From positions 1 through 64,000 of the forward strand of contig JAVSML010020348.1 of the NCBI GenBank assembly GCA_038503035.1: a stretch of 64,000 nt of DNA, written 5' to 3'. This document shows positions 9,345 to 64,000 of the stretch, in pieces; within the stretch, counting starts at the first letter, position 1, and every line of letters begins with the position of its first letter. A model generated the notes under the pieces. The model saw only the letters and a list, made by a program, of their open reading frames with translations, ran no database searches and had not been told where the DNA came from. This DNA comes from Crocodylus rhombifer. Its lineage: Eukaryota; Chordata; Crocodylia; Crocodylidae. Both the position numbers and the translations under genes were made by a program.

Positions 9345-10285
9345 CTGTGCGAAGCTTCAGGTGTTGATTCAATTCGGAGGAGATTCGGCTCAATTTGGCG
9401 GCCGAATCTCCAACTCGAATAAGGAGACCAATAAAAAGGACTGAATTGATTCGAAGCTCTCTGAATCAATTTGGAAAAGATTCAGAGGGCTTTGGAGATT
9501 TGGGTAGTCCCCGCTGGCCACCACAGGGAGCTGGACCCAGACTCTGTGCTGGTAAGTAGGGGGCAGAGGTGAGGGTGGGAGAAGGGGGGAGAGGACCATG
9601 GGGAGGCCCCTACCAGGCCCCATCTCCTGCCTGTCCCCTCAGCCCCCTGAATGCCCTCTGACCCTTGCCCGCTCTCCCAGTCCCCTCCCCATGGCTGCCC
9701 TGGCTGCCCCTTGCTTCTGGCTATAAAAAAAAAAGCAAAAAAAGCCCCTATTCACCAGCTTCTGCCATGTGGGGGGGCAATCCCCACTGCCCCCCACTGC
9801 CCCACACTGCGTGGGGGGCTCTGCCATAAGCCCCCATCCTCTACCTGTTCTCCCAGCCCCCCTCTGGCTGCCCTGCCCACCCCAGTCCTCGACTCTTTAA
9901 AATAAAAAAAAAGCCTTGCACTCACTGGCTGCTGCAGTGGCCTTAGGGCTTCTGGGGGCTTGTGGCAGAGCCCCCCATGCAGCGTGGGGCAGTGGGAGGC
10001 AGCAAGGATCATCAGCCCACCTGGCAGGAGCTGGTGAGTTCGGGACTTAAAGAAAAAAAAAAGAGAGAGCTGGGGTGGGCGGGGCAGCCATTGACAGGGC
10101 TGGGAGAGTGGGTGGGGGATGGGGCCTGTCCAATTTGTATATTCTGCCGAATCGGCAGTGGCCGAATCTCTGAATCAGATTCAGCTGAATCTATTCAGGA
10201 CAGTGATTCAAATCACCGAATCAAATCACTGTCCCCCGAATCAGCCGAATCTGAATCTGAAGCCAATACTAGCTGCTTTGCACAG
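9345..10285. mobile_element. GC-rich composite DNA element with short TIRs and GAATC-rich ends
   Basis: The termini CTGTGCGAAGC (9345-9355) and, in reverse complement, CTGTGCAAAGC (10275-10285) match at 10 of 11 bases. Inside each end lies a zone dense in GATTCGGC/GCCGAATC-type words (about 9365-9500 and 10145-10265). The core (9590-10130) is GC-rich with inverted copies of a block containing CAGAGCCCCCCATGCAG-like sequence (9775-9835 against 9962-10045) and repeated poly-A tracts after CTGGCTGCCCTG-like sequence. No target-site duplication was found and no transposase. The superfamily is unassigned. Long open frames here arise from GC richness. Confidence 0.55.
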
Positions 10286-16215: not shown

Positions 16216-16431
16216 ATCTGCTAGGCCTGTGAGAGTAGGCAGCTATTCGATCCAGCTTTGGATCTGGCTGCTTTGGATGCCAGGGATCCAATCCAGAGCT
16301 CCAAACTGGGTTTCCATTTTGATCCAGCCAAAGCAGCTCTGAAGCTTTGGAGCTGCCTCGGAGATCTGACCATGGGGTATAATGGGGGATCAATGAAATA
16401 TCTATAACTTTGTTGTTTTTTGTCTGATTTG
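16216..16431. repeat. Lead-in to the 154 bp tandem array
   Basis: The segment has several GGATC/GATCC words (TTTGGATCTGG, GGGATCCAATCC, TTTGATCCAGCC), arranged as small inverted repeats. It abuts the CR1 5' break on one side and runs straight into the tandem array on the other. It is likely the end of the same repeat as the array. Not identified. Confidence 0.4.
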
Positions 16432-17020
16432 GATGAAACTTGCAGGGATGGTAGAATCTACAGAGAGCATGAAGTCTGCCAATATTCAAGAAGATCAGTG
16501 CAGTGGTTTGGGGGAAACTGCATCCCAAATTCCTGAAAGCAAAATTTATGTCACATCTATATGTTACATCACAGGGGGGTGAAAACTGCAACAGTCATGG
16601 CCCCTAGTGAGACTTCAAAGCCAGCCAAGTTTCAAGTTGAAAGGTGTAGGGGTTTGGGGGAAACTGCACCTCAAGCTGCTGACAGGCAAAACTCATGACA
16701 CAAATGACCCTGAGTGTGTTAAGGTGCAGTGGGCTGAAAACTGCAGGGTTGGTAGCCCCTGCTCAGGCCACAAAGCCTGCCAAGTTTCAGGGAGATAAGT
16801 GCAGGGGTCTGGGGGAAACTGCAACTCAAGCTGCGGACAGGCAAAACTCATGACATGGGTGACATTGTGTGTGTTAAGGTGCAGCGGGCTGAAAGCTGCA
16901 GGGATGGTGGCCACTGCTGCAACCACGAAGCCTGCCAGCTGTTGAAGAGATAGGTGCAGGGAGGTTCTGGGGCCCTGCACCCCTAGCTGCTGACAGACAA
17001 AACTCATGACATGGGTGCTT
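16432..17020. repeat. Tandem array, about 3.8 units of about 154 bp
   Basis: Units start with a GAAA-CTGCAGGGATGG-like block at about 16432, 16579, 16733 and 16888, giving unit lengths of 147, 154 and 155 bp and a partial last unit. Each unit has the same order: ACTGCAGGG, CC(A/T)GCCAAGTTTCA or a variant, GGGGGAAACTGCA, GCTGACAGGCAAAACTCATG, and GTGTGTTAAGGTGCAG. The second and third units are the most alike; the first and last are more diverged. Open frames through it carry stops and do not resemble a repeat protein. Confidence 0.8.
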
Positions 17021-33118: not shown

Positions 33119-35012
33119 CATCATAGATTTCATAGATTTCATAGACATTAGGGCTGGAAGGGACCTCGGGAGATCATCGAGTCCAGCCCCCTGCCCAAAG
33201 GGCAGGAAGTCAGCTGGGGTCATAGGATCCCAGCAAGATAAGCATCCAATTTACTCTTGAAGGTGTTCAATGTAGGTGCTTGAACCACCTCCGCTGGCAG
33301 ACTGTTCCAGACCTTGGGGGCTCGGACAGTAAAGAAATTCTTCCTTATGTCCAGCCTGAAACGGTCTTGCAGGATTTTGTGACCGTTCGACCTCGTCATC
33401 CCTTGGGGCGCTCTGGTGAACAAACGTTCCCCCAGATCCTGGTGGTCACCCCGATAAACTTATAGGTGGCCATCAGATCACCCCTGAGCCTACGCTTTTT
33501 CAGGCTAAAGAGTCCCATGGCTCTCAGCCTGTCATCGTAAGATCTGTTTTCCTGACCTCTGATCATGCGCGTGGTTCTCCTCTGGACTCTCTCAAGCTTC
33601 TCCACATACTTTTTGAATTGTGGAGCCCAAAACTGGACGCAGTACTCCAGCTGCGGCCTCACCAAGGCCGAGTACAAGGGGAGAATGACGTCCTGGGATT
33701 TGCTCGAGAAGCATCTATGGATGCACGCCAGCATTTTGGTCGCTTTATTAGCCGCAGCATTGCATTGCAGGCTCATGTTCATCTTGTGGTCAATGATGAC
33801 CCCCAAGTCTTTTTCTTCTGTAGTGCTAACCAACGTAGCACTTCCGAGCCTATAAGGGTGCTGCAGGTTTTTCCTCCCAAGGTGGAGAACCTTGCATTTT
33901 TCGGTGTTAAACACCATGAGGTTCTCGTCTGCCCATTTGCTGAGCTTGTCCAGGTCAGCCTGGATCACCTGCCTATCTTCTGGCGTGGATGCTTTGCCCC
34001 AAAGTTTGGTGTCATTGGTGAACTTGGCCAGTTCACTCCTGACTCCAATGTCCACATCGTTAATGAAGATGTTGAACGGTATGGGTCCCAGGACAGAACC
34101 TTGAGGGACCCCACTGGTCACAGGGCACCATGATGAGTGACTGCCATCAAGCACAACCCTCTAGGTCCGACCACGAAGCCAATTTCCCAGCCAGCGGATC
34201 GTGGTGGAGCCAAGGCCACAACTGGCCAGTTTGGCCAAGAGGTGATCATGGGATACCAGATCAAAAGCTTTTCTGAAGTCAAGATATATGACATCAATTT
34301 CTTCTCCCTCATCCAGGTGATAGGTCACCTGGTCATAGAAGGAAATGAGATTGGTCAAACAAGACCTACCCCCAACAAACCCGTGCTGGCTGTCCCTTAG
34401 AATGTTAGCCTGGGCCAGTCCCTCAAGGATGGCCTCCTTAATAAACTTTTCTAAGATCTTCCCCAGGATAGAAGTCAGGCTAATGGGCCTGTAGTTAGCC
34501 GGATCCACTCTCCTCCCTTTCTTGAAGATCGGCACCACATTGGCCTTCTTCCAGTCTTCGGGCACTACACCAGAGCACCAGGAGTTTTCAAAGATCCGTG
34601 CCAGGGGCTGGGCTATGACGCTCGCCAGCTTCTTGAGTACCCTGGGGTGCAGGTTGTCAGGGCCAGCTGACTTGAAGGTATCCAGCTTCTCAAGGTGTTC
34701 CTTCACGAGGTCAGCATTGATGGAGGGTAGGGGATCCCCCTCACCCAGATTTCCCTGTCCCATAGCAGGCATGGGCGTCCCGTGTGACTGATGAAAGACT
34801 GACGCAAAGTACCTATTTAATAGATTGGCTTTTTCCTGGGCATCAGTTGTCAGTTGCCCCATCTGGTTTAGCAGGGGTCCAACATTGCCCTTGCTTTTCC
34901 TCTGGCTCCCCACATATCTGAAAAAGGACTTTTTGTTGTCCTTGATGCCTGAAGCTAGTTGGAGTTCAGTTGCAGCCTTGGCTTTCCTGGTTTGGTCCCT
35001 GCAGGTAAGCAC
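33119..35012 (-). mobile_element. Young 5'-truncated CR1 LINE (about 1.9 kb)
   Basis: A minus-strand CR1 copy with its 3' end at 33119-33150, made of three ATAGATTTC-type tail units before GGGCTGGAAGGGACCTC. It carries the whole reverse transcriptase part of ORF2 but lacks the 5' UTR, ORF1 and endonuclease. Coding is broken only twice, showing a recent insertion. It is a close relative of the copy at 56584-57619: over about 200 shared residues the two frames differ at only about a dozen positions. It interrupts an unidentified repeat. Confidence 0.93.
33220..35012 (-). pseudogene. CR1 ORF2 reverse transcriptase, inactivated
   Basis: Reading from 35012 leftward, the first 283 codons run through NYRPISLTSILGKILEKF and YLDFRKAFDLVSHDHLL to the end at 34164. 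A TAG at 34161-34163 follows GRT, where the sister copy at 56584 has CAG (GRTQRVV), so it is a simple nonsense change and the frame continues. Next come [10 protein letters not shown] and the catalytic box, read as FTNDTKL: the first aspartate is asparagine (AAT at 34014-34016, GAT in the sister). A one-base deletion near 33450-33455 then shifts the frame. The end is recovered in another frame (33423-33220) with RLDIRKNFFTVRAPKVWNSL. The product would be inactive even without the breaks. Confidence 0.9.
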
Positions 35013-39966: not shown

Positions 39967-39976
39967 NNNNNNNNNN
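39967..39976. other. Assembly gap (10 N)
   Basis: Ten undetermined bases inside a stretch rich in purines (GGGGAGGGAGGGAAACAGGGG just left). The real missing length is unknown; N runs of fixed length usually stand for an unsized gap. Open frames that read across it are not real evidence. Confidence 0.98.
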
Positions 39977-56576: not shown

Positions 56577-57537
56577 ATGACATATGGTCGGACCCAGAGG
56601 GTTGTAATTGATGGCAGTCACTCATTGTGGTGCCCTGTGACCAGTGGGGTCCCTCAAGGTTCTGTCCTTGGACCCATCCTGTTCAACATTTTCATTAATG
56701 ATGTGGACATTGGAGTCAGGAGTGGACTGGCCAAGTTCACCGATGACACCAAACTTTGGGGCAAAGCATCCACGCCAGAAGATAGGCAGGTGATCCAGGC
56801 TGACCTGGACAAGCTCAGCAAATGGGCAGATGAGAACCTCATGGTGTTTAACACCAAAAAATGCAAGGTTCTCCACCTTGGGAGGAAAAACCTGCAGCAT
56901 CCTTATAGGCTTGGCAGTGCTACGTTGGATAGCACTACAGAAGAAAGAGACTTGGGGGTCATCATTGACCACAAGATGAACATGAGCCTGCAATGCAATG
57001 CTGCGGCTAATAAAGCGACCAAAACTCTGGCTTGCATCCATAGATGCTTCTTGAGCAAATCCCGGGATGTCATTCTCCCTTTGTACTCGGCCTTGGTGAG
57101 GCCGCAGCTGGAGTACTGCGTCCAGTTTTGGGCTCCACAATTCAAAAAGGATGTGGAGAAGCTTGAGAGAGTCCAGAGGAGAGCCACGCGCATGATCAGA
57201 GGTCAGGAAAACATCTTACGAAGATAGGCTAAGAGACATGGAACTCTTTAGCCTGGAAAAGCGTAGGCTCAGGGGTGATCTGATGGCCATCTATAAATTT
57301 ATCAGGGGTGATCACCAGGATCTGGGGGAACGTTTGTTCACCAGAGCGCCCCAAGGGATGACGAGGTCGAACGGTCACAAACTCCTGCAAGACTGTTTCA
57401 GGCTGGACATAAGGAAGAATTTCTTTACTGTCCAAGCCCCCAAGGTCTGGAACAGTCTGCCAGCGGAGGTGGTTCAAGCACCTACATTGAATACCTTCAA
57501 GAGTAAATTGGATGCTTATCTTGCTGGGATCCTATGA
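56577..57537 (+). pseudogene. CR1 ORF2 reverse transcriptase C-terminal part, frameshifted
   Basis: The first frame (56577-57227) reads [35 protein letters not shown], then the catalytic box as FTDDTKL with both aspartates kept, and CNAAANKATKTLACIHRCF. It ends after RMIRGQEN. A two-base deletion at about 57212/57213 (sister copy has AG here) shifts the frame, which resumes at 57238 with LFSLEKRRLRGDLMAIYKFI and RLDIRKNFFTVQAPKVWNSL up to LAGIL. The protein lacks the fingers and endonuclease. Truncation as well as the frameshift makes it inactive. Confidence 0.9.
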
Positions 57538-57619
57538 CCCCAGCTGACTTCCTGCCCTTTGGGCAGGGGGCTGGACTCGATGATCTCCTGAGGTCCCTTC
57601 CAGCCCTGATGTCTATGAA
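56584..57619 (+). mobile_element. Young 5'-truncated CR1 LINE (about 1.04 kb)
   Basis: A plus-strand CR1 ending near 57619 with CCAGCCCTGATGTCTATGAA. It is truncated upstream just before the GRTQRVV motif of the reverse transcriptase, so it keeps only about the C-terminal half of ORF2. It is close kin to 33119-35012. The tail has fewer TCTATGA-type repeats than the other copies. It lies in the centre of a MITE and is flanked by ATATGA. Confidence 0.92.
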
Positions 57620-57788
57620 ATATGAGCTTTAGTTAAAATGCCCCCACAGCCATTTTGAAATGCAGCAGGGAAGGGTGGGAGTACTTAATACATGTGACAC
57701 TGAGCCATTTTAATTAGAGCAGCTGTCTGGGAACCACTGTAATTTAAAACAGCTCCCTCCCCACCTCCAAGCATGTGTATAGGCAGCC

Positions 57789-59504
57789 ATGGTGACCATC
57801 TACTCTTTTAGGAAATTCAGGACACAGGTACAAAAATAAGACAACTTATTTTCATAAGAGTACTTATCAGGAATAAAATACTGCCTTAAACCTTTGTGTC
57901 ATAGTGCCTGATCCTTCAAGTAATTATTGCTTGGAAAACACACATGCACATATATGTTAGCTTCTTGTTCAGTATGGATCATAGTAACTTGTTATTCAAT
58001 ATGGTCCCAAATAAGAAATATTTTTAAAAATATGTGCTGAGTGTTTAGTACCTATGTCTAAGGAAGACATGACTGCCTTGTGGAGGCCAGGTACTTATTT
58101 TTAAACCAGAGATGCTAATTGAACAAAAATGTAGAACACGTTCAGTGTTTAAATTCACATTCAGGTCTTTGGTCACTGATGCAGGTTTACTTACAAGTCT
58201 ATGAAAAGTAATAGATCTGACATTTAGCTACAAATGCTAATGGCAAAAGCCAGCAATACAAATTTGAGTTTGAAAAGGTTTAACAGGGCTTGGTTAGCTG
58301 AACTGACTGGCTTGAGTTGCTTCTGTTCAAGTGACTTGCTATACACTTCACTGCTACTTATTGTAACTTTGTGCCAGCCAGTTCATCCCATCTGTTCCAT
58401 GGCACACCCATTAAAATATATCATTTACCAGAAGTAAATCTATCTTACAATGGTCATCTTTCAAGCAACTTAGAAAAAAACTGTAGGTAGCAATTATTCA
58501 ACTTATTGCTCTACCAACTTAAGCATTTTAGCTTTAATGGGCTGCCAAACTATAGAGAAGTAGTGCTTGTGGCATGACTAGAAAGAAGAGAATGAGCTGG
58601 GAGTTAGAAAAGCAAATTGCGTTCCTTCATGCTATAGCTAAAATAGCTGACTGTTAGATTTTCTTTTCCTGGGTAGATCCCCTATAATGGTAGCTTTAAT
58701 TGGGTATTTCCACCCTTTTTATCACTTGTTTATATTAACACAGATTCTCACCGCTCTTCCTTTGCAAGTGAGCAATGCGCAATTAGAGGAGGCTCATGTA
58801 ATTGATGTAATTAACAGATAGAAAAGTTATGATACAGAAAAGAAAAATAAATCCAGTAGAATATTTAGTACAGTTTGACAGCTCTGGCACATGTCATACT
58901 TTAGGAGTATGTGTGCTACCTGCAATAAACTAAACATATTTTATCAGCTAATGCTTCTGGTACAACTTACCTAAGCAACTCTTGAAGTTGAGACATCAGT
59001 CACTTGAAGCTGAGATATGAATGAATAATGACCTATCTGAATTTACAGCAACCTATTGTCATTGTCAGCAAAATATCAAACCATTAAATAAGCCTCTATA
59101 ATTTAAAAAAAGTTATCCAGTCCAGGCAGATAACATTATCTATTCCTTAACCTGTTTTACTTAGGTTTTTTTGTTGTTGCAAAGTTGTTATAGTATAGTG
59201 GGTCACACTGAGTGCTGGTGGTTCTATGTTAAAGCAGGACATAAAGTTATATAATAAAATTAAGTCCAGAGGGATAGGCAGGCAAAGTGATTTGACATTT
59301 GGGGTAACGGCAAGTATGCATTAGCTTGTACATGATAGTTGAGGGGTAGAAAAAAGCAGTGAAAAATTTGAATTCATTCTCAGAGTCATGAATGAGAAGC
59401 AAAAGGGAAGGTCTGGTTACTTGTCACTTAGCTGTTTGTTACTGTAACAGTTGTGTTCCCCATAAAAAGAAGGAGGTGGAATTGAGGGTTTGTTTTTTGT
59501 CAAT
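57789..59504. other. AT-rich non-coding DNA
   Basis: No gene recognised. Frame 58234-58437 has no family motif. Confidence 0.55.
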
Positions 59505-59590
59505 AAATGGGGTTGTCTTTGTTCTGTACCTACCACAATGGGATCATGGTCAATGACTTGGGCTCCTAGGAGTACTGATAACACATTGCC
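59505..59590 (+). repeat. Decayed amniote repeat tail
   Basis: GTTGTCTTTGTTCTGTACCT then CACAATGGGATCATGGTCAA and TGACTTGGGCTCCTAGGAG is reminiscent of a tail sequence found repeatedly in sauropsid genomic DNA and 3' UTRs. Identification is from memory of the pattern, without a search, and is uncertain. Confidence 0.3.
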
Positions 59591-60056
59591 TCACACAAGG
59601 TTGGCAACATGTCAGCAAATGTCCATGAAACAGGACATTAGTCTTCAGTTTTCTGTTTGTATTCAAGAAGTACAATATGGATCCATCACTCGTCTGTTAA
59701 AAATCTTCCATAATCTCTTTGAGGAAAACAGCTTCTCCAAATCAGCTTCTGAATGTAGGATTTCTGCCATGTCAGCTGTTGGCATCATGGAGAAGTGAAA
59801 GAATTCAATATACATTCTTCACTTTGGCAAGTTCTACAACTCTAGCTATCATCTGCTGTTTATGGAAGGGGCCCTCAGATTGCCAGTGATAACTTTCCTC
59901 CCACTTTCTTTTAAGTTTCTGTCTGTCAGCACTGGCTTACTTCACCTGTATAAATGCTCTCATCCTTGTTCTCAATTGTACTGGGAGTCCAGGCTGACCA
60001 ACCTCCCCTTTGTCTTGGACTTCAGAAGACCCATAAAAGAGATGGGATGAAAGACA
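59591..60056. other. Non-coding DNA
   Basis: Frames at 59490-59798 and 59862-60050 are unconvincing; no domain or splice pattern recognised. Confidence 0.5.
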
Positions 60057-60366
60057 GATAGCCCAGGAAGAAATTATTGACAAATCTGAATCTAGTTCCA
60101 TCTACCTGAGGTGATGAGAGCAAGTGTTTTGAGGGCTGTTAAGTCTCATCAATAATTTAAGAGAACACTGTATTAAACCCTATTCATTAAAAGCCTAGAG
60201 AGCACCTGAGTGGCAAGCATCATGTATCATCATTTAAAAGACACAGTTTTAATTATTTCTCCTTCTCCCTACCCAGATGATAAAGGCATCTATTAAATTA
60301 CTTTTTCCTGTCTTGCATGGTAAAGGTAGAGGTTAGTAATCAAATATAGCTGTACGTATAACACAT
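60057..60366 (+). repeat. Left arm of 310 bp inverted repeat
   Basis: The arm begins GATAGCCCAGGAAGAAATTA and ends TGTACGTATAACACAT. It is the reverse complement of 61599-61908 with no insertions or deletions and three substitutions: left bases A60090, A60167 and T60318 correspond to G, G and C on the same strand sense in the other arm. Identity is 307 of 310 (99.0%). It is unique-looking, AT-rich, non-coding, and has no TIR or poly-A tail. Confidence 0.97.
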
Positions 60367-60719
60367 CACTTCTTAAAATATCTGAATTCATATTACGTTG
60401 TAGGGTGTACACATGCGAGTGTGTGTACTGAGATTGAGAATTAGAGAATGAGAACAAACTATTATGTGATCATGAAACTGTAAGGGAGATGGAGATTGGG
60501 TTGGGCAGTTATATGGTACTGTGAAGTACAAACTGGAGGATCAGCAGTCTCACCATATTTTGATTATTCCAATAACTGAGTTTTGCTGCTGTCTTTTTAA
60601 AGCAAACATGATCTTTATAGGGAGCTAGACAAATCTTATATTTTGTGAAATGTTATTTTACATGTGTTGTTTTAGTAGACTTTATTAGTATTTCTAGGCT
60701 AGTGTCCTTTTGACACTGT
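60367..60719. other. Spacer between inverted arms, left part
   Basis: Unique-looking AT-rich DNA with no gene. It differs from the DNA next to the right arm, so the near-identity ends sharply at 60366. Confidence 0.6.
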
Positions 60720-60974
60720 GGGTGCATCTACATGGGCATTAATGCACTTTTCCTAATGCGCATTAAATTTAGTACCTCCAATGTGAGGTACTAAATAAAT
60801 GCACATTAAGCTGCCCTAATGCACAGTAGCAAAAGCCCATGCTTTTTTTTAGTGATGCTTAATGCACAGTAGCCTATTTTACTGCTCATTAGCATATTTA
60901 CAGTTTTTTATGTGACGCTTTAATGCACAGTAAAATAAGCTACTGTACATTAAAGCACACATGTAGATGTGCCC
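60720..60974. mobile_element. MITE-like TIR element, family A (255 bp)
   Basis: The left end GGGTGCATCTACATGGGCAT and the reverse complement of the right end GGGCACATCTACATGTGTGC are strong inverted repeats. The interior repeats TTAATGCACAGTA-type words and has GGTACTAAAT/ATTTAGTACC, forming foldbacks. It is kin to 13798-14030. It lies in the spacer of the 310 bp inverted repeat. Confidence 0.7.
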
Positions 60975-61598
60975 AGTGATATCCAATAAAGTGTAAATAT
61001 AAACATTATACAGAAAAAAATCTCAAACCTACTAGGGGAAGAATACTTGTAGACACTGTCCCTGAACACAATGCAAGACTGTCTGCAGAAGGAAGGGAGT
61101 AGCTGGCTCTCTGATCATTTCTACCTCCTCTTGCACTGATTGGATGTTGTTGGATGGGGGAATGTAGCTCCAGTCTAGCGTGGCATGTGTATCATACCAG
61201 ATAGAGATTCCAAGTTATTTGACGTACCTATATTTTTCTATGGACACTAGAAATGGGGCATGCAGAGCAATGAAAGTAAAGGAATACATCAAGGACGAAA
61301 GGAAGAGCATGTTGTTTCATAGACAATGAGAGAAGCATAGTAAGGATATCATCCAGATTTTCAAAGAGGCCTCTTGATATTACATCAGTTAACTTCTGGC
61401 CTTGCTTATGAATATTAACAGCAGTCGTTCAACAAAGGAACATTCATATCCTCCACCTATGCTAAACTTTCCACTACTATAAACTCACTGCAGTTTTTAC
61501 ATTAAAGTGTTAAAGGTACACTAAAATTATTTTACTCTTGCCTAAACAAGCTGATATAACTAGTGATATTGCTTACGTATGCTTTTGCTAAATGCATC
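60975..61598. other. Spacer between inverted arms, right part
   Basis: AT-rich, no gene recognised. Confidence 0.6.
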
Positions 61599-61908
61599 AT
61601 GTGTTATACGTACAGCTATATTTGATTACTAACCTCTACCTTTACCGTGCAAGACAGGAAAAAGTAATTTAATAGATGCCTTTATCATCTGGGTAGGGAG
61701 AAGGAGAAATAATTAAAACTGTGTCTTTTAAATGATGATACATGATGCTTGCCACTCAGGTGCTCTCTAGGCTTTTAATGAATAGGGTTTAATACAGCGT
61801 TCTCTTAAATTATTGATGAGACTTAACAGCCCTCAAAACACTTGCTCTCATCACCTCAGGTAGATGGAACTAGACTCAGATTTGTCAATAATTTCTTCCT
61901 GGGCTATC
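61599..61908 (-). repeat. Right arm of 310 bp inverted repeat
   Basis: Reverse complement of 60057-60366 at 99.0% identity, with no gap. The arm begins ATGTGTTATACGTACAGCTA and ends ATTTCTTCCTGGGCTATC. Bases just outside it (ACTGAAG on the right, GCATC on the left) do not match the other side, so both boundaries are sharp. Confidence 0.97.
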
Positions 61909-61995
61909 ACTGAAGTATTGTGATTTAAGAAATTCTCATGCTGGTATAACAAATTCAGGAGGCAAGTGGGTATGAAATTACAGCCACTCCATTTA
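61909..61995. other. Non-coding DNA
   Basis: Short stretch with nothing recognised. Confidence 0.5.
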
Positions 61996-62000
61996 GAGAC

Positions 62001-62037
<37 letters not shown>

Positions 62038-62038
62038 C
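61996..62038. repeat. (GA)n microsatellite
   Basis: GA repeats with one AAAG interruption, about 43 bases. The minus-strand open frame of repeated Leu and Ser here is a by-product. Confidence 0.95.
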
Positions 62039-64000
62039 TCTATTAGCACACAAGCTGGAGAAAGAGTGGAAGTGAAATGAATCCTACCTCCTGCATCTTC
62101 CTTCAGCAAGAAAGTAGTTAAATGCTTCTGCTGAATAGGCTCAGAGACTCCTAAAAGAAGGCTTCTTGTGCTATTTCTATCTATATCCAGCATGAGGAAC
62201 TAAGGCCAGCTGTCCAATCTTTCTATCATCATTGCTGTCATTTACATTTTGAGATGAAACAAAGCTAGAGCAATGAAGAAAGGGGGTAAAAAGAGACTTG
62301 CTTTGCACTCAAGACTTATGTCAAAAATGTTTCAGTCCTCAGATAATTTGCTCAGTTCTGGCTCCCTTCATATTTACTTCAAAGCTTCAGTGAAAATGAA
62401 AGGGAGGAAAAATGGTATTTAGGTTTGCAGATAGATGTATCTTGCATTCTTGTGACCATATCTAACCTTGCTGATAGGTGTCTTCCTCTTAAGTTAGAAG
62501 CTTGCTACTAACCTCGAAGAAATCTATTTGGAAAGTAAGTCAAGGATACTGCTATCCTAGTAAATGTTAAGATATATATCAACTTCGTTGGGTATTATAT
62601 ATTGTTAATTAATCTAACATTTTAGCTGCATTCATATATATATCTGTGTATAAACTTAGTATTAAACAGTTTTAATATGAATTTTATTTTTGATCAATTA
62701 ATAGGTTTGTTTAGAACACCAGAAGAAGACTATAGTCAACATGAACATGCAGACTGAATACTCATGTTGATGATGCTTGTCAGTTACTTTCCAATCGATT
62801 TAAACAATCTTGATCTTAAACATTGTTGCCTTCTTGACTTACCACTATTAAAAAAAAAAAAAATTCCTTTCCTAACCAACCCAAATGCCAAATACCCTCC
62901 TCCAATACTTAAGCACAAAAGAAAGAATGTTTATTCTGGAGCTGCATTAAAGTGCGAACACTTTGCGTTAAAGCTATTTTCTTTAGAAATAAAATCCAAA
63001 TTAAAAGAACATAATGGTCTCGAAGTCAAACATCTAAACTGGAAAAGCTGGAATTAAGATGGCACATGCTATCATAATTTGCCATCATCTTGAGCATCCG
63101 CCTGGTCCAGTCATCCCAATTCCATTCCTCAATCTTCTCCATGCTTTCTGGATGCCCTCAGGAGGAGTATTGAGAGAACAGTAGGGACTGTCTCCTTCCT
63201 CATAGTTCTGACATATCACTAAATAGGCCAGTGGCCAGGAAGATCAATTATTGAGAAAGTCCTGCTTACCTGACAGAGTATAGCCAGTGAAGACAGACAG
63301 ACTAGTCATAGGATTCAGTGGCTAAATTGTAACACGTCTGTCCTGTACATAGTCCAGCTGTGACTTGTCTCTCTAAAGTTTTATAATTTAGCCAAATATG
63401 GATGATTTTTTCATGGATGCCTGTAAAAGCACACATTAACTCAAAGGGCATACTGTATCAGATTTTAAGTCCTCACTTCAAAGCATGGAGGCACTGGCAT
63501 TTCTTAACCAGTTATATTTTTGATATGGGCAAAATTGCTTACTCCTTGCCCCTCCCCTGTCCCGTCCTGTCTCAGCAGCAGCTTCTGTTTTAGGGTATAG
63601 AGACATGTAACCATTTTATCAATATCTACCAATACAGATCTAAGATGCTGTAGTACAACCATTAGCACTGCATGCTCCTGTAGTGTAGTACACCTAAATG
63701 AAGCCAGGTTCAAGGTGCAGTGATTTAGCTAACTTGTATCCCCATGGGAGCATGCCGAGGTAGCAGTTGCATCATAATAGCTAATGTTTGCTTTCTGGTA
63801 GCAGCATAATAAGCACAATCCTTCCTGCTGCTGGGGAAGTTGGGGACTGGTGACATCACTAACTATATATTTTGGCACCAAAATGATAAGAGACAGATAT
63901 AGTTCCTGAAACTCTTGTTGGAATCAATCGTACCTATACACATGCTCCAATGCATTCTGATTAGAATATGTTGGTGCAGACTCAATTAATTATGCTGCAG
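62039..64000. other. AT-rich non-coding DNA
   Basis: No gene or repeat end recognised. A 13-base A run is at about 62851-62863 and a short TA run near 62634. The frame 62764-63057 is AT-driven, with no motif. Confidence 0.55.

What the first reader, a model, noticed from the sequence alone, without database searches (positions are those of the whole stretch)
60057..61908. 310 bp inverted repeat, 99% identical arms, 1.23 kb spacer holding a MITE
Arms 60057-60366 and 61599-61908 are reverse complements over 310 bases with no gaps and only three differences (60090, 60167, 60318). The edges are sharp and the arms look like ordinary unique AT-rich DNA, not like a known transposon end. The spacer contains a family A TIR element. 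In a region where other repeats are decayed, this identity points to a recent inverted duplication, to gene conversion between arms, or to an assembly error. All three differences are transitions with A/T in the left arm and G/C in the right, which would fit GC-biased conversion but is far too few to show it. If transcribed, the arms could form a 310 bp double-stranded RNA.
Basis: seen in the sequence. Interest (0 to 1): 0.85.

Follow-up and report, generated by a model that had tools for sequence, protein, structure and literature searches.

The report
Local inverted duplication in crocodilian DNA
A 310-base stretch of otherwise unique reptile DNA is present a second time, flipped, 1.2 kb away; it looks like an ordinary, fairly recent copying accident with no sign of a function.

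Summary
In the window's own genome (2.2 Gb) the arm has two matches at E <= 0.001, itself and its partner, and four flank and spacer queries match only themselves. So it is not a dispersed repeat or a transposon end. The MITE in the spacer belongs to a large family (39 other scored copies, 83-88% identical) and looks incidental. Two of the three differences are CpG versus CpA/TpG: ordinary decay in the left arm, which removes most of the case for GC-biased conversion and argues against an assembly error. At a published crocodilian rate the copy is about 4-12 million years old, with wide limits. Junction microhomology is 1 and 3 bp if the right arm is the copy and none if the left is, a weak hint. 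Best reading: a templated inverted insertion by template switching, neutral since. A staggered-break micro-inversion has the same shape and cannot be excluded without an outgroup. Ordinary; low interest.

The parts
60057..60366 (+). left arm of the inverted repeat; under the favoured model the original copy, with CpA/TpG at two sites where the right arm has CpG
60367..61598 (.). 1232-bp spacer: single-copy DNA on both sides of a MITE
   Evidence: the stretches 60990-61598 and 60367-60720 match only themselves genome-wide at E <= 0.001
60716..60981 (.). MITE-like terminal-inverted-repeat element of a large family; looks like an incidental passenger
   Evidence: 5393 candidates in the first look, 40 scored, 39 of these elsewhere in the genome at 83-88% identity; strong fold-back. 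The ends are approximate
61599..61908 (-). right arm; under the favoured model the inverted templated copy
61596..61598 (+). ATC before the right arm, the same three bases as the arm's outer end (61906-61908): possible 3-bp microhomology
   Evidence: of 20,000 random junction pairs 8.6% reach a total of 4 bp or more

Best explanation
A real, local, non-transposon inverted duplication. During replication or break repair a 3' end most likely switched template to the opposite strand about 1.2 kb away, copied 310 bases of single-copy DNA, and switched back, leaving an inverted copy; the right arm is more likely the copy. Both arms have since drifted neutrally. Shown: the structure, the absence of other copies at E <= 0.001, the single-copy flanks, the CpG-type differences. 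Inferred: the template-switch mechanism, which arm is new, the neutrality.
For: Genome-wide the arm has two matches, both at this locus; flanks and non-MITE spacer are single-copy. No target-site duplication: the best exact direct repeat near the ends is 4 bp, and 1557 of 2000 random pairs of places reach 4 bp or more. Junctions have 1 and 3 bp of microhomology if the right arm is the insert, 0 and 0 if the left is. Germline templated insertions in two people had at least 1 bp at 138 of 155 and 135 of 148 resolvable junctions (PMC8421209, passages). Two of three differences are CpG transitions, against P 0.0057 for random substitutions or 0.048 for random transitions. Age at 3.9e-10 per site per year (PMC4299795, passage): 12.5 My (2.6-37) from all sites, 4.2 My (0.1-24) without the two CpG differences.
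Against: The microhomology is weak: 4 bp or more in total occurs in 8.6% of random junction pairs. The CpG pattern does not say which arm is the copy. A templated switch of 310 bp across 1.2 kb is longer than the short-range events in great apes (gold-standard set: median 12, maximum 128 bp; PMC7954356, passage). No outgroup or read data were available. A staggered-break inversion gives the same anatomy, and one version of it also has a 3-bp joint.
Confidence: 0.6

Rival explanations
1. Micro-inversion with staggered breaks: the 1232-bp spacer was inverted and the 310-bp overhang at one end was filled in and kept at both ends in opposite orientation.
For: The anatomy is what this mechanism leaves. 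In Drosophila subobscura inversion O8, small fragments including one of 380 bp are duplicated at the breakpoints, and the duplicated fragment is in inverted orientation at both (PMC5080602, passages). Microhomology at the new joints: 3 and 0 bp if the right arm is original, 1 and 0 bp if the left is.
Against: Nothing here shows that the spacer was ever in the other orientation; the inverted segment would be small (1.2 kb). The joints are no better than for the template switch.
Confidence: 0.22
2. Assembly error: a read or contig was placed twice, once inverted.
For: The assembly is fragmented (14,832 contigs) and holds N gaps: one 10-N run in the window, and N in 5 of 13 other sampled stretches.
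Against: No N in or near the structure. The arms differ at 3 of 310 sites, two of them CpG transitions, which is how diverged copies look and not how one sequence placed twice looks. Assemblers tend to collapse near-identical repeats (general knowledge). No second version of the locus was found in the assembly at E <= 0.001.
Confidence: 0.08
3. An older inverted repeat whose arms are kept alike by arm-to-arm gene conversion.
For: Proposed for long inverted repeats in Caenorhabditis (PMC1803023, abstract and Discussion). The present identity gives only a minimum age if conversion occurs.
Against: Nothing requires it: the divergence fits a simple age of a few to some tens of million years, and the three differences are spread along the arm.
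Confidence: 0.08
4. A non-autonomous DNA transposon with 310-bp terminal inverted repeats.
For: Long inverted arms around a non-coding interior; a TA dinucleotide sits two bases inside each outer end.
Against: Only one such element found in 2.2 Gb, interior single-copy apart from the MITE, no target-site duplication, no Pfam domain in the three spacer ORFs of 60 aa or more.
Confidence: 0.02

Closest known systems
MMBIR-type templated insertions (human germline variants, PMC8421209, passages)
   Same: An inserted copy of a nearby stretch, with little microhomology at the joints
   Different: The ancestral empty site is not available here, so insertion is inferred; the length (310 bp) and distance (1.2 kb) were not compared with that paper's events
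Inverted duplications at staggered-break inversion breakpoints (Drosophila subobscura, PMC5080602, passages)
   Same: Inverted duplication of a few hundred bp at the two ends of a segment
   Different: Those are chromosomal inversions polarised by the uninverted arrangement; here the segment is 1.2 kb and unpolarised
Long inverted repeats (LIRs) as defined for Lirex (PMC5414712, first of two parts of the text)
   Same: Arms over 30 bp, mismatch rate under 15%, GC over 20%
   Different: The definition says nothing of origin; most LIRs in genomes are shorter (general knowledge)
Small inverted triplications (PMC13334657, abstract and outline)
   Same: Local inverted copying on the scale of 100-300 bp, tied there to replication errors
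   Different: Those are DUP/INV/DUP with about 30-bp spacers; here only two copies and a 1232-bp spacer

Membership tests
Long inverted repeat (Lirex definition) | Arms >30 bp, mismatch rate <15%, GC >20% | tested here: met
   310 bp, 3 mismatches, arm GC 36%; definition
Templated inverted insertion by template switching | Inserted copy matches a nearby template in reverse complement and is not found elsewhere | tested here: met
Templated inverted insertion by template switching | Microhomology at both joints | tested here: inconclusive
   1 and 3 bp under one polarity, 0 and 0 under the other; random control 8.6%
Templated inverted insertion by template switching | Empty site in a relative | not testable with these tools
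   states that this genome has no relatives held
Staggered-break inversion | Inverted duplication at both ends of a segment | tested here: met
Staggered-break inversion | Segment inverted relative to the ancestor | not testable with these tools
   no outgroup held
TIR DNA transposon | Multiple copies in the genome | tested here: not met
   2 matches, both this locus
TIR DNA transposon | Target-site duplication | tested here: not met
   best exact direct repeat near the ends 4 bp, as at random places; a 2-bp TA cannot be judged
TIR DNA transposon | Transposase or relation to an autonomous element | tested here: not met
   no Pfam domain in the three spacer ORFs of 60 aa or more; relation to an autonomous element only by the absence of other copies
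Conversion-maintained inverted repeat | Arms more alike within a species than to orthologues, over long times | not testable with these tools
   no orthologues held

The most novel reading that the evidence does not exclude
The arms are old and kept alike by recurrent arm-to-arm conversion or by selection for a transcribed 310-bp hairpin that feeds small RNAs or ADAR editing.
Probability: 0.04. Interest if true: 0.5.

Novelty: new member of a known kind. Interest (0 to 1): 0.15.

Why it matters
It matters little beyond being a clean, datable example of small local inverted duplication in a slowly evolving genome. If orthologues were aligned, it would show directly whether this structure arose by template switching or by staggered-break inversion.

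Tried and rejected
Transposon with long terminal repeats: rejected. Dispersed repeat: rejected. Phage or virus origin of the arm: no match in phage records and no exact match of a 37-base piece in viral contigs; both tools say that records near the window's own genome may be left out. Known RNA family in the window: none at gathering threshold.

Gene around the locus: 71 ORFs (69 of the 75 non-LINE ORFs of 60 aa or more that one search lists from 46.3 kb on, one at 40.7 kb, one LINE ORF) gave one Pfam family, the reverse transcriptase of the LINE ORF. Ten hand-picked ORFs, several of them LINE-like, gave only reverse transcriptase, in 3 of 10. Of 129 ORFs of 80 aa or more in 64-114 kb ten large ones were scanned; one has a reverse transcriptase domain and nine have no match. 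Other ORFs of 1-46 kb and 64-114 kb and short exons were not scanned, so an intronic position is not excluded.

Search for a paralogous empty site: none, as the flank and spacer queries found only themselves.

Base rate: in 239,833 bases of this genome (window, 50 kb beyond it, 13 stretches of other contigs) three inverted pairs of 150 bp or more and 85% or more identity were listed; this is the only one with arms less than 5 kb apart, and the other two, like two direct pairs, join LINE-like copies over 18 kb apart. Elements that match their own reverse complement in place were dropped from that count; one search shows two (160 bp at 83%, 287 bp at 87%). The sample includes the window that was picked for the repeat, so it gives no rate.

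Print on such repeats in crocodilians: the listings (9 of 9 papers; 6 of 34 papers) show none on this by title; this is not proof of absence. PMC8755829 (passages) treats inversions of 17-33 nt between inverted repeats, too short to compare.

Full report
Observation. The inverted repeat is as described: arms 60057-60366 and 61599-61908, 310 bp, ungapped, three substitutions, spacer 1232 bp. It cannot be chance (arm-to-arm E from 3e-153 to 9e-158). The only N run of the window is 20 kb away.

What the arms are. The genome that holds the window is available (2,205,923,966 bases, 14,832 contigs; the window is C5102:1-64000; the contig has 181,076 bases). The left arm has two matches at E <= 0.001, itself and the right arm. 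Flanks 59400-60056 and 61909-62600 and spacer pieces 60367-60720 and 60990-61598 match only themselves. The tool warns that very common words are skipped and that no match does not show rarity; still, the same search finds the MITE of the spacer in large numbers (5393 candidates, 40 scored). So the arms are best taken as single-copy DNA that was duplicated once.

The MITE. The spacer element at about 60716-60981 has 39 scored relatives elsewhere at 83-88% identity; the other candidates were not scored. If these are its closest relatives, the element is far older than the arms' 1% divergence, so it was probably there before the duplication, and it touches neither joint.

The three differences. 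Read in the left arm's sense they are A/G at 60090, A/G at 60167 and T/C at 60318. The last two turn a CpG of the right arm into CpA and TpG in the left arm. In this CpG-poor window (387 CpG where base composition alone gives 2805) that is the usual decay of CpG. Two or more such changes in three has P 0.0057 for random substitutions and 0.048 for random transitions. This accounts for most of the A/T versus G/C pattern without biased conversion, and it is what truly diverged copies look like. It does not say which arm is the copy. Low heterozygosity of crocodilians, which would also speak against allelic misplacement, is recalled and not from a call.

Age. With 3.9e-10 substitutions per site per year, the rate used in PMC4299795 and called rough there (passage seen), divergence dates the copies at 12.5 My (95% 2.6-37) from all sites and 4.2 My (0.1-24) without the two CpG differences. 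Gene conversion would make these minimum ages.

Mechanism. There is no target-site duplication. If the right arm was inserted, its two joints share 1 and 3 bp with the template's surroundings; if the left arm was inserted, 0 and 0. Of 20,000 random junction pairs 8.6% reach 4 bp in total, so this is only a hint. In human germline templated insertions most resolvable joints have at least 1 bp (138 of 155 and 135 of 148; PMC8421209, passages), which fits the right arm as the copy. A staggered-break inversion gives the same anatomy and is reported to leave inverted duplicates of a few hundred bp in Drosophila (PMC5080602, passages); its joints show 3 and 0 or 1 and 0 bp here. Without an outgroup the two cannot be told apart. 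I favour the template switch because it needs no inversion of the spacer.

Function. If transcribed, the arms would pair over 308 (+ strand) or 309 (- strand) of 310 positions. On the + strand the differences are two A-C mismatches and one U-G pair; on the - strand two G-U pairs and one C-A mismatch. No gene or RNA family was seen nearby in what was scanned, but only part of the ORFs was scanned and small exons would be missed. Neutral DNA is the plain reading. With a spacer of 1.2 kb instability should be modest: in wild-type yeast a 1.5-kb spacer between inverted Alus lowered rearrangement rates 31-fold relative to a 12-bp spacer (PMC10164571, passage).

Rarity. In 239,833 bases of this genome this is the only inverted pair of 150 bp or more, at 85% or more identity, with arms less than 5 kb apart, self-matching hairpin elements left out, and the sample includes the window chosen for it. 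Verdict: real, correctly described, ordinary.

Noticed in passing
33136-34173 and 56585-57621: Two LINE copies (reverse transcriptase domain; CR1 type is my label from the matches) in opposite orientation, 95.6% identical over 1039 columns, 22 kb apart; a third, similar stretch at 75147-76762 of the same contig is 81-86% identical.
   Followed up: partly
60716-60981: MITE-like element of a very large family in this genome: 5393 first-look candidates; the 39 other scored copies are 83-88% identical.
   Followed up: partly
G000:C10576 and C10577, 7395-7647: The same MITE match at identical coordinates and score in two consecutively numbered contigs, which suggests a duplicated contig in the assembly.
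   Followed up: no
39967-39976: A 10-N assembly gap; 3 of 13 other sampled stretches also hold 10 N in total, and two more hold 100 and 400 (run lengths not listed).
   Followed up: no
16431-17011: Array of about four diverged units spaced 146-156 bp.
   Followed up: no
9752-9836 and 9953-10037: Short inverted repeat, 83.5% identical over 85 bp, 116-bp spacer.
   Followed up: no
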